Source: Brachyspira hyodysenteriae ATCC 27164
GTDB taxonomy: Bacteria > Spirochaetota > Brachyspiria > Brachyspirales > Brachyspiraceae
Direction of reading: 5' to 3'
DNA length: 64,000 bases
NCBI RefSeq assembly: GCF_001676785.2
Contig: NZ_CP015910.2
Location: 310,001-374,000 of the forward strand
Positions 4,495 through 49,752 of the stretch are shown piece by piece (the first letter of the stretch is position 1; every line of letters begins with the position of its first letter). The notes beneath the pieces were generated by a model, which was given only the letters and a program-made list of their open reading frames with translations, did no database searches and had not been told where the DNA came from. A program made the position numbers and the translations under genes.

Positions 4495-4535
4495 ATAAAA
4501 AACATTATGATAGTTTCATACTAACCTAATAAAAA

Positions 4536-4640
4536 CTTGGGCGGGTATGCTTTTTCTTATTGCAGTAAAAAAATATATGAAGTTATAATACAAATAAAAA
4601 TAAAAAAACAAAAGGGCGGGGTATGTAAATAAAATTTTTA
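4536..4640 (+). repeat. Dispersed intergenic element with G-rich ends, copy 1
   Basis: It opens with CTTGGGCGGG (4536-4545) and closes with GGGCGGGGTATGTAAATAAA (from 4614), with about 70 AT-rich bases between. The same two end motifs in the same order and at similar spacing recur near 37.0, 47.4 and 48.8 kb, and inverted at 37.1 and 48.6 kb. The G runs stand out sharply from the background. It sits between the terminator of one gene and the 3' end of the convergent gene. Confidence 0.7.
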
Positions 4641-36826: not shown

Positions 36827-36972
36827 TTTATTCTCCTAAAAAATTTTATTATCATAATATAATAAAACTTCAAGCATTACAAGTTTTAATGCATAGTAAT
36901 ATTAATATTTTTTATAATAATATTTTAATTTATTAGTTGCGGGGGGTATTAGAGTTTTAAATTTTATAAAAA

Positions 36973-37075
36973 CTTGGGCGGGAGTTAACAATTCTAATTA
37001 AGTTTTATAGACAATTAATATTAAAATTCAAAATAAAGTATTAAAATTAAAAGGCGGGGTATGTAATAAAAGTTT
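36973..37075 (+). repeat. Dispersed element with G-rich ends, copy 2
   Basis: CTTGGGCGGG (36973-36982) and GGCGGGGTATGTAATAAA (from 37053) bracket AT-rich sequence, as in copy 1. It is followed at once by an inverted copy. The rest of the 458-base gap from 36827 is AT-rich without a gene. Confidence 0.7.
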
Positions 37076-37093
37076 AAAAATTTAATTACATTT

Positions 37094-37181
37094 GCCCACC
37101 CTTTATTTTTAAATTTCTTTATAATATTTGAGTATTATTTTTCTTTTTAATAATATCTGTTATTTTAGCTACCCACCCAAG
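37094..37181 (-). repeat. Dispersed element with G-rich ends, copy 3, inverted
   Basis: GCCCACCCTTT (from 37094) and ACCCACCCAAG (37171-37181) are the complements of the two end motifs in the reverse order. Copies 2 and 3 thus face each other about 20 bases apart and could pair as a long imperfect hairpin. Confidence 0.65.
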
Positions 37182-37284
37182 ATTTTTTTAAATTTCTAGC
37201 ATATTCATCGCCGTGTAACTGAGGTATTATACTTTTTATTGTAGAGTAAAGTATTAATAAAAAGTAATGCTAAATAAAACAATA

Positions 37285-46607: not shown

Positions 46608-47282
46608 ATGCTTACTGTTTACATTGCTGCAAGAGATATAGGTAATTATAAAGACAATACTGAAAGATTAAAAGAGGTTTTAATTGAAAGCGATATTGTC
46701 TTAGTTGAAAGTTTCAGAGAGGCTACTACACTTTTTAAAGCACTTAATATAAATAAAGATAAAGAATGTTTGATAGAGTTTAGCGAACATACAAAAAAAT
46801 CAAAAGATATTGATGAAATAATTACAAAGATTATAAATTGCAAAACTGTTACTCTTATAAGCGATTGCGGCACTCCAATATTAGAGGATCCTGGAAGATT
46901 ATTACTTGAATATTGTTATGCTCATAATATAAAGGTTCGTCCTGTAGCAGGTGTAAGCAGTGTTACGGCCGCTATAATGTGTTTGCCTTTTAATTTCAAA
47001 GAATTTTATTATGCTGGGCTTTTACCTCGTGATGACAGAGAACGTGAAAAAAAATTATCATATTTAAAAAGATTAAATGTACCTGTTATAATATTAGACA
47101 CGCCATACAGATTAGGCAAAGTTCTTAATGCCATTAAAAAAGTTTATTCTAAAGATAAAGAAATAGCTTTATGTTTGGATATTACAACTGAAAGCGAAGA
47201 AATCATTATAGATAGAGTATCAGATATATGCAGTGAATATCAGGAAGGCAAAAAAAGAGAATTTGTAATTGTTATAAGCTGA
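46608..47282 (+). CDS. Divergent RsmI-like SAM-dependent methylase
   Basis: The 224-residue protein is of the tetrapyrrole-methylase superfamily and aligns with RsmI, the 16S C1402 2'-O-methyltransferase, but key motifs differ: RsmI's ATPIGNL is AARDIGNY, EDTR is ESFR, SDAGTP is SDCGTP, PGPSA is AGVSS and ESPHRL is DTPYRL. It is also about 50 residues shorter, lacking the C-terminal extension. It may be a genuine but diverged RsmI or a paralogue with another substrate. It lies ten bases after the amidase gene and probably shares its transcript. Confidence 0.7.
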   Translation: MLTVYIAARDIGNYKDNTERLKEVLIESDIVLVESFREATTLFKALNINKDKECLIEFSEHTKKSKDIDEIITKIINCKTVTLISDCGTPILEDPGRLLLEYCYAHNIKVRPVAGVSSVTAAIMCLPFNFKEFYYAGLLPRDDREREKKLSYLKRLNVPVIILDTPYRLGKVLNAIKKVYSKDKEIALCLDITTESEEIIIDRVSDICSEYQEGKKREFVIVIS

Positions 47283-47296
47283 TTATAATTTTTAAT

Positions 47297-47506
47297 CGCA
47301 CGCTGAGTGATGCTAAAAATATAAAATTGATTATTAATTCAAACTAAATTTCTTATCAAGATGCATTCACCGTGCGTTTAGAAAATTTTTAAATTTAATT
47401 AACGCTTGGGTGGGCATTCCTTTTTATAATTTAAGCTTTTAATATAAATAAAATTTTTAATTGAAATTAATACTATAAATTTTAAAGGGCGGGGTATGTA
47501 AATAAA
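47297..47506 (+). repeat. Long direct repeat, left copy, beside the Mrr gene (includes dispersed copy 4)
   Basis: It starts CGCACGCTGAGTGAT and runs to GGGCGGGGTATGTAAATAAA. The first 90 bases are bounded by CGCACG and CGTGCG, complementary ends with GTGA/TCAC next to them, so they can fold as one long hairpin. The second part is the G-rich-ended module (CTTGGGTGGG at 47405). A copy of the whole, almost as long and about nine bases in ten identical by eye, begins at 48661. Confidence 0.8.
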
Positions 47507-47544
47507 GCAAAAAAACAAAATTTTATTTTAGATTATTATAAATA

Positions 47545-48465
47545 TTAAATTATAACATCATAAATATTTCTTGTTTCAAGTACTTTTACTCCCACTTCAT
47601 ATTCACGCATATATTTAGCAAGTCTGTATCCGTTAATCAAAATTATTTTTATATCTTTTAATTCTTCTACAACTTTTTTAGCCTGCGGAGTGTAATCTGA
47701 AGTTGTTATAAAAATTCCTCTGTTTATGCCATTGACATTTTTAAGCCCATGAGCAAATTTAGTTATTTCTGTATCATTAACTTTATTATTTTCTTTATAG
47801 CATTTGCATTGTATGCCTATCATATCAAAACCGAATTTATCCATAGTAAGAGTACCATCAATTCCTCTGTCTCCGCTTCCACCTGTTCTATACTTTTTAC
47901 CATAACCCATTTTTTCAAGCAGTTCTAAACATATATTTTCAAATTTAGTACCCTTGTCAACATTGTTATCACCCATAGACTGCAAACGATCAAGTATATC
48001 TTTCTCTACACTTTCATAATATTCTTCAATGCTCTTTTCTATTTCATTTCTATTTTCATCTTCTTCTAATTCTTTATTATTATTTTCTTCTATATTGTTT
48101 TTATCTTTATGCTTAATATTTATTAAATATGGAGTTTTTTCTTTTAATGTTTTGAAATCAAAGTTAGGATTTTCTTCATAGAATTTTTTACCGAAATCAG
48201 TTATTTGATATACTCCTCTATCAACATTTTCAATTAATTCTGCTTGTTTTAAAAATGTTAAATTCCAATGTATTTTATCTTTAAATTTTGAATATCCATT
48301 CTTACTTGATTTTACATTTTGATAAACTATATTATAATCTTCATCACTTGTATTTGAATACTCTTTTATCTTTTCATATGTTTTACTTCTATGTACTGCT
48401 TCATTAACTTCATAAAAAAATTTTAGAACATATTTACAATAATCTTCAGTTACTAAAAGTGCCAT
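47545..48465 (-). CDS. mrr: Mrr-type restriction endonuclease
   Basis: The 306-residue protein has an N-terminal winged-helix region (about 1-100, including HWNLTFLKQAELIENVDRGVYQITDFGKKFYEE, as in Mrr_N), a Lys/Glu-rich linker, and a C-terminal PD-(D/E)xK domain: KFENICLELLEKMGYGKKYRTGGSGDRGIDGTL with Glu176 and Asp203, then Gln219-x-Lys221 in GIQCKCYKE. Mrr enzymes cut DNA carrying foreign methylation and respond to stress. The Cys within QCK replaces the usual Ala. AGGAG precedes the ATG. It stands alone between two direct repeats, which suggests gain as a cassette. Confidence 0.88.
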   Translation of the reverse strand: MALLVTEDYCKYVLKFFYEVNEAVHRSKTYEKIKEYSNTSDEDYNIVYQNVKSSKNGYSKFKDKIHWNLTFLKQAELIENVDRGVYQITDFGKKFYEENPNFDFKTLKEKTPYLINIKHKDKNNIEENNNKELEEDENRNEIEKSIEEYYESVEKDILDRLQSMGDNNVDKGTKFENICLELLEKMGYGKKYRTGGSGDRGIDGTLTMDKFGFDMIGIQCKCYKENNKVNDTEITKFAHGLKNVNGINRGIFITTSDYTPQAKKVVEELKDIKIILINGYRLAKYMREYEVGVKVLETRNIYDVII

Positions 48466-48545
48466 TTATAAAACTCCTAAACTTATACAACAAAATAATA
48501 CTTTAATAATCTCTTTTTTACAATGTTTTTTATTTTATTCTGAAA

Positions 48546-48633
48546 CCCCACCCTTTATATTTTTTAGTTTTAATTAATTATTTTACTTTTATTATATTTA
48601 TAGCCCTATCAGAATTTTTAGCACCCACCCAAG
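48546..48633 (-). repeat. Dispersed element with G-rich ends, copy 5, inverted
   Basis: CCCCACCCTTT (from 48546) and CACCCACCCAAG (to 48633) are the complements of the end motifs. It lies just upstream of mrr, inside the right-hand repeat block. Confidence 0.65.
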
Positions 48634-48660
48634 TTTTATTTAAAGTTACAATCTTTTCAG

Positions 48661-48862
48661 CGCACGCTGAGTGATTATAAAAATATAAAATTGATTATTA
48701 ATTCAAATCAAATGTATTAATAAGATTGATTTACCGTGCGTTTAGAAATTTTTAAATTTAATTAACGCTTGGGTGGGGGTGCTTTTTCTAATTTAAGCTT
48801 TTAATATAAATAAAATTTTTAATTGAAATTAAAACTATAAATTTAAAAGGGCGGGATTTAAA
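48661..48862 (+). repeat. Long direct repeat, right copy, beside the Mrr gene (includes dispersed copy 6)
   Basis: It has the same order as the left copy: CGCACGCTGAGTGATT, about 60 AT-rich bases, CCGTGCG, then CTTGGGTGGGGG (48768) and GGGCGGG (48849). The arm that faces GTGA is TTAC here instead of TCAC, which still pairs through a G-T pair. The rest of the 48466-49020 gap is AT-rich without a gene. Confidence 0.8.
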
Positions 48863-49020: not shown

Positions 49021-49752
49021 TTATTGTTTTAATTTGATAATATCAGTTTCGTTTTCTTTTTTGTATTCCTGCTCTTCATCTGAATTATTTATTATAACAA
49101 ATTGGCATTTTCTGTCTTTATCATTATACTCAGATGAATGAGTAGAGCCATATCCTATATATCTAAGTCTATCTTTATCTATTCCTTTATCTACTAATTT
49201 ATCAAATATCGCTTTTGCTCTGTTTTCAGATAAATATATATTATAATTTGAGTCCCCTATACTGTCGCTATGTCCTTCTATTATTAGATTAATATCTCGA
49301 TTATTATTTAAATATTTGCAAATTTCATCTATCCCTTCATTATATTCATTTTTTAATTCATAAGAATCAAAATCAAAAGATATTATATTTGCAGTAAGAA
49401 GAATCTCATTATCATCTTTCTGTATAACCTCAGTTTGCTTTATAACTTGAGGTTTTTCTTCTTCTAAAGCATCGTTATTTGTAAGTTCTTCTTTTTTTTC
49501 TTCTGCTTTTTTACTTACTTGTGCTTGAGTATTTGTATATTCTTTTTTTTCTTTTATAGGATCTGCTACAGTTGTAATATCATCTTTTTGTATATATGTT
49601 TTTGATGCTGTTTTTGTAGACTGACTATTATCATTATAAAGTACAGCATGGAGCTGTTTACTAAAAGCTAATACTACAACATGTTTATCATTAGTAGAAC
49701 ATGAAGCTGCCAAAATTAATACAAAGATTAAAGTAAAAATTTTTTTTATCAT
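49021..49752 (-). CDS. OmpA-like peptidoglycan-binding lipoprotein
   Basis: The 243-residue protein has a lipoprotein signal (ILAASC, Cys18), a Lys/Glu-rich spacer of about 100 residues, and a C-terminal OmpA-like domain: ANIISFDFDSYELKNEYNEGIDEICKYLNNNRDINLIIEGHSDSIGDSNYNIYLSENRAKAIFDKLVDKGIDKDRLRYIGYGST. The Asp and Arg residues that hold diaminopimelate in this family (GHSDS.., SENRA) are present. It should tie the outer membrane to the cell wall. It is the last gene of a seven-gene minus-strand run of envelope proteins. Confidence 0.9.
   Translation of the reverse strand: MIKKIFTLIFVLILAASCSTNDKHVVVLAFSKQLHAVLYNDNSQSTKTASKTYIQKDDITTVADPIKEKKEYTNTQAQVSKKAEEKKEELTNNDALEEEKPQVIKQTEVIQKDDNEILLTANIISFDFDSYELKNEYNEGIDEICKYLNNNRDINLIIEGHSDSIGDSNYNIYLSENRAKAIFDKLVDKGIDKDRLRYIGYGSTHSSEYNDKDRKCQFVIINNSDEEQEYKKENETDIIKLKQ

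What the first reader, a model, noticed from the sequence alone, without database searches (positions are those of the whole stretch)
47297..48862. Mrr endonuclease gene between about 200-bp direct repeats
The left block (47297-47506) and right block (48661-48862) share a hairpin-forming 90-base part and a G-rich-ended part in the same order and are alike for about 200 bases. The intervening 1.15 kb holds mrr and one inverted element copy. Direct repeats at this spacing would let the gene be lost or gained by one recombination, a cassette for a restriction gene with no transposase.
Basis: partly seen in the sequence, partly recalled or inferred. Interest (0 to 1): 0.65.

Follow-up and report, generated by a model that had tools for sequence, protein, structure and literature searches.

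The report
Mrr gene between dispersed palindromic repeats
In this intestinal spirochaete (Brachyspira), a gene for a DNA-cutting defence enzyme sits between two copies of a genome-wide palindromic repeat, and relatives carry the same kind of spot with one repeat and no gene, so the repeats appear to act as docking points through which single genes are gained, lost or relocated.

Summary
Blocks 47288-47508 (E_L) and 48532-48862 (E_R) are 87-90% alike and bracket an apparently intact mrr gene (type IV restriction family). The blocks are not private to mrr. They are copies of a palindromic intergenic repeat, here called E: full length about 335 bp, 112 exact arm matches in this genome, abundant in 23 of 26 genomes of the genus. 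The "inverted copy" in the interval is the left arm of E_R; E_L lacks that arm.

One orthologous intergene has no E in three genomes, one E in another, and E-mrr-E in a fifth. A slot beside a flagellin gene holds a single E in two genomes, E-other gene-E in two more and E-remnant-E in a fifth. E-mrr-E also occurs at a third locus. Synteny between close relatives breaks at the edges of E_R.

Best reading: E is a MITE/BOX-like dispersed repeat whose copies serve as portable homology, making exchangeable single-gene slots. Homologous recombination is inferred, not shown. No transposase, target-site duplication or excision product was found; breakpoints are not enriched in E overall, and mrr also occurs without E. 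No description of E was found in the papers searched.

The parts
46608..47282 (+). rsmI-like gene (short 16S rRNA 2'-O-methyltransferase paralogue), left neighbour
   Evidence: TP_methylase 4.5e-16, TIGR00096 1.1e-39, below its curated cut-off
47288..47508 (+). E_L: repeat copy lacking the outer left arm (CGCACGC 47297, CGTGCG 47371, GGGTGGG 47408, GGGCGGGG 47487)
47545..48465 (-). mrr, type IV restriction endonuclease-like, 306 aa, motifs intact
48532..48862 (+).
48546..48553 (+). outer C-block CCCCACCC of E_R
   Evidence: sequence
48624..48667 (+). CCCACCC to CGCACGC, left arm of the inner palindrome of E_R; pairs with 48735-48777
   Evidence: inverted repeat I1
48849..48855 (+). outer G-block GGGCGGG of E_R
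   Evidence: sequence
49021..49752 (-). OmpA-family lipoprotein gene, right neighbour of E_R in this genome but not in most relatives
   Evidence: PF00691 7.3e-20; synteny

Best explanation
E is a dispersed, palindromic, non-coding repeat of Brachyspira (MITE/BOX-like, about 335 bp, of the order of 100 copies in this genome). Two E copies in direct orientation bracket mrr. Because every E offers homology to other E copies, and E_L/E_R are unusually alike, recombination between copies can delete the gene and leave one E, insert a gene-plus-E unit into a resident E, or swap what lies beyond an E. The mrr locus is therefore an exchangeable single-gene slot, one of several in the genus. Shown by comparison: the E family, and the alternation none / E / E-gene-E at orthologous sites. 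Inferred: that RecA-type homologous recombination is the engine, perhaps fed by DNA from gene transfer agents. How E itself first spread is not known.
For: E dispersed in 23 of 26 genus genomes, near absent in three; 112 arms in this genome. Same intergene (peptidase M50 - radical SAM): no E in G004, G009, G015; one E in G014; E-mrr-E in G020, both flanks alignable. Flagellin slot: single E in G000 and G008; E-ORF279-E in G022 and G024; E-remnant-E in G025; a 397-405 aa gene plus ORF279 beside the same flagellin in G018 and G021. c10 lyase locus: E alone in several genomes, E-mrr-E in G005, G006 (B. hampsonii) and G014 (weak left E), no E in G007, G009, G015. The E next to c10 in G005 resembles the resident c10 E of mrr-less genomes (A part 92% with G024 and G025) more than its own partner E_R (74%). 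G006 has rsmI-E-mrr-E-c5 and c10-E-mrr-E-ompA while G000 has rsmI-E-mrr-E-ompA and c10-E..E-c5, i.e. exchanged ends. Between genomes 94-95% identical in rsmI, synteny breaks at the left edge of E_R (G024, G008) or its right edge (G025).
Against: Most E pairs are only about 60-75% alike, poor substrates for RecA; the mrr pair and a few others are closer. Pooled synteny breakpoints are not enriched in E (33 of 83 against 37% expected, p 0.32; enriched in one region, p 0.0006, not the other). G022 (rsmI-E, no mrr) also changed its right flank, so it is not a clean excision. The direction of change (gain or loss of mrr) is not settled. Several key genomes are MAGs (G014, G020, G021, G023, G024), where repeats can mislead assembly.
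Confidence: 0.6

Rival explanations
1. E-mrr-E moves as a composite non-autonomous transposon: a transposase acting in trans on the E ends carries the gene between two E copies, as shown for TIMEs and other MITEs.
For: Full copies end in AAATTTTATT / AATAAAATTT inverted termini; the gene plus both E copies recurs at different loci; E is palindromic and dispersed like a MITE.
Against: No target-site duplication could be read at the empty sites; no transposase with matching ends was noticed, though none was searched for systematically; at two loci a lone E occupies the site in relatives without mrr, as expected for recombination into a resident E.
Confidence: 0.2
2. Neighbourhood by chance: E copies accumulate in intergenic regions, and mrr merely happens to lie between two of them.
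For: E flanks many ordinary genes; mrr lacks E in G007, G009, G013, G015, G016, G018.
Against: mrr is next to E at several independent loci, including remnants (rsmI, c24/c21, c10, c5); the mrr-flanking E pair is the most alike in the genome sample; E-gene-E alternates with E at conserved flanks.
Confidence: 0.12
3. E acts mainly as a 3'-end or transcript-structure element (terminator or RNA stabiliser) and its role in gene exchange is incidental.
For: E occupies 12 of 22 convergent but 6 of 34 divergent intergenes in the sampled regions (Fisher p 0.007); strong hairpin.
Against: Arms of one copy match each other no better than arms of different copies (p 0.997), so there is no sign that individual hairpins are maintained; avoiding promoters explains the bias equally well; no Rfam family matched.
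Confidence: 0.06
4. Mrr is the enzyme that mobilises E, as RAYT transposases are thought to spread REP sequences.
For: One mrr per genome in many genomes, often flanked by E.
Against: Genomes G002, G010, G012 and G022 have E but no mrr match; mrr occurs without E in other species.
Confidence: 0.02

Closest known systems
Bacterial MITEs and TIMEs bracketing cargo genes (reviewed in PMC10969869; TIMEs in PMC4133298)
   Same: Short non-coding dispersed elements with inverted ends; pairs bracket genes and can act as recombination sites or composite units
   Different: No parent transposon, no target duplication and no transposition shown for E; E is palindromic over almost its whole length, with three nested GC-rich blocks
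BIME/REP and BOX-type modular intergenic repeats (REP in PMC2817692; BOX from own knowledge)
   Same: High-copy, intergenic, palindromic, modular, often in alternating orientation; E also avoids divergent (promoter) intergenes
   Different: E is about ten times longer than a REP (20-40 bp, PMC3733652), no RAYT was seen with it, and its arms show no within-copy covariation
Integron gene cassettes (own knowledge)
   Same: Single genes bracketed by palindromic sites, gained and lost one at a time
   Different: No integrase or attC motif was identified (not searched for systematically); slots are dispersed, not an array
Type IV Mrr restriction endonucleases
   Same: Mrr_N plus Mrr_cat domains, DxQxK-type motifs
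   Different: Nothing unusual in the protein fold; its N-terminal half is replaced between close relatives (79-80% against 96% for the C-terminal half)

Membership tests
Mrr type IV restriction endonuclease | Mrr_N and Mrr_cat domains above cut-off | tested here: met
   (54.4 bits vs 29.5; 101.1 vs 21)
Mrr type IV restriction endonuclease | Cleaves methylated DNA | not testable with these tools
   needs an assay
MITE | Short, multi-copy, non-coding, with inverted ends | tested here: met
MITE | Target-site duplication at insertions | tested here: inconclusive
   empty c24-c21 sites too diverged to place the junction
MITE | Ends shared with an autonomous transposon | not tested
   no systematic search made
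REP/RAYT system | Mobilising enzyme gene flanked by repeats in every repeat-rich genome | tested here: not met
   E without mrr and mrr without E
Composite (E-bracketed) gene unit | Same gene with flanking repeats at different loci | tested here: met
   rsmI, c24/c21 and c10 loci
Known structured RNA | Match to an Rfam family | tested here: not met

The most novel reading that the evidence does not exclude
E is a dedicated recombination site: an unknown recombinase, or strand processing of the large palindrome, uses E copies as standard docking sites for single-gene cassettes throughout the genus, an integron-like system without an integron array.
Probability: 0.07. Interest if true: 0.85.

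Novelty: new variant of a known kind. Interest (0 to 1): 0.5.

Why it matters
Brachyspira genomes are known to be heavily rearranged (PMC2897892, PMC3532143), and those studies point to mobile genes and phages. A dispersed palindromic repeat with of the order of 100 copies, sitting at some rearrangement junctions and bracketing variable single genes, gives a concrete and testable substrate for part of that plasticity. It also suggests how a defence gene such as mrr can come and go without its own transposase.

Tried and rejected
Rfam search of the region: nothing. E in phage and plasmid records: no match. Covariation of hairpin arms: rejected by arm-swap permutation; RNAalifold covariation term about zero. 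General enrichment of synteny breakpoints in E: not significant overall. Mrr as the mobiliser of E: rejected by lack of co-occurrence. Reading a target-site duplication from the empty c24-c21 sites: flanks too diverged. PDB sequence search with Mrr: no match. No described E family was found in the Brachyspira genome papers searched.

Full report
What is there. The window lies in a Brachyspira genome: 3.04 Mb chromosome plus one small contig; named relatives of its mrr are all Brachyspira. Between an rsmI-like gene (46608-47282, +) and an OmpA-family lipoprotein gene (49021-49752, -) lies a 306-aa mrr (47545-48465, -) with Mrr_N and Mrr_cat domains, a PADLOC type IV match and GDRGID/QCK motifs intact. 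The two flanking blocks are direct repeats of 82-85% ungapped and about 90% gapped identity, with a 44-nt exact shared run.

What the repeat is. The left block alone hits 45 places in this genome, and an exact arm pattern occurs 112 times against 6 for the reversed control. An alignment of copies gives the full unit: a palindrome of about 335 bp with nested GC-rich blocks in an AT-rich body. E_R is full length and folds end to end (z -7.2); E_L lacks the outer left arm. E is abundant in 23 of 26 genus genomes and almost absent from three. No Rfam, phage or plasmid match was found. Arms of one copy do not match each other better than arms of different copies (p 0.997), so individual hairpins are not visibly maintained: the palindrome looks inherited and decaying. 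In the sampled regions E prefers convergent over divergent intergenes (12/22 against 6/34, p 0.007).

Is the mrr pair special? Copies in this genome average 63% identity; E_L and E_R are the closest pair in the sample. E also brackets ordinary genes (LUD-domain, flagellin, CreD, malic enzyme), so bracketing as such is not unique to mrr.

Alternative states in relatives. (a) Between a peptidase-M50 gene (c24) and a radical-SAM gene (c21): no E in G004, G009 and G015; one E in G014; E-mrr-E in G020, with left and right flanks alignable throughout. (b) After the c10 lyase gene: E-mrr-E in G005, G006 (B. hampsonii) and G014 (left E weak); E without mrr in G000, G008, G016, G022, G023 (contig ends after E), G024, G025 and G004; no E in G007, G009 and G015. 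The E next to c10 in G005 is nearest to the resident c10 copies in its outer part, which suggests mrr joined a pre-existing E. (c) After rsmI: E-mrr-E in G000, G008, G024, G025, G004 and G006 (pseudogene in G006, interrupted in G024); E plus mrr up to a contig end in G023; E with a remnant in G005; E without mrr but a changed right flank in G022; no E in others. (d) A second cargo: between a LUD-domain gene and a flagellin gene G000 and G008 have one E, G022 and G024 have E-ORF279-E, G025 has E-remnant-E. ORF279 ends shortly before an E at every locus where a close homologue was examined (nine).

Exchanged ends. G006 carries rsmI-E-mrr-E-c5 and c10-E-mrr-E-ompA; G000 carries rsmI-E-mrr-E-ompA and c10-E..E-c5. 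These are the junctions expected from one exchange between two E-mrr-E loci. Against close relatives (rsmI 94-95% identical at DNA level) homology stops at the left edge of E_R in G024 and G008 and at its right edge in G025. The N-terminal half of mrr is 79-80% alike in G025 and G008 while the C-terminal half stays at 96%, so the gene itself is mosaic.

Limits. Pooled breakpoints in two sampled regions are not enriched in E (33 of 83 against 37% expected, p 0.32), although one region alone is. Most E pairs are too diverged to recombine easily. mrr without E is common in other species. Several genomes are MAGs. Recombination, excision and transposition were not observed; no duplication or transposase was found.

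Mechanism and kind. I judge recombination between E copies the likeliest engine (0.6), trans-mobilised composite transposition next (0.2). E behaves like MITE/BOX/BIME-type repeats that offer portable homology, a role already described for MITEs (PMC10969869; PMC4133298). What is new, as far as the held literature shows, is the E family itself and its single-gene slots in Brachyspira, whose rearranged genomes are known (PMC2897892, PMC3532143) without mention of this repeat in the passages read.

Noticed in passing
G000 chromosome, arm positions: E arms are concentrated in the half of the chromosome farthest from dnaA (87 of 100 listed; p 1e-14).
   Followed up: partly
window 47545-48465: The N-terminal (specificity-side) half of mrr is replaced between close relatives while the catalytic half is conserved.
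   Followed up: partly
window 36963-37223 and 4522-4638: Two further partial E copies in the window; at 36963-37223 two B arms face each other.
   Followed up: no
L143:4194-4925: Other repeat-like inverted sequences (GCAACTTTTTTGGCAAAAAAAGTTG and a GC-rich GGGCAAAGCCCC-type block) lie between the two E copies at the c10 locus.
   Followed up: no
L216:8728-9567 and relatives: ORF279, a protein with no Pfam match and many distant paralogues per genome, is a second E-associated cargo.
   Followed up: partly
L110:5385-6067, L146:8228-8663, L154:4517-4974: E units can be chained, forming alternating palindromes (GGGCGGGG..CCCCACCC joints).
   Followed up: no
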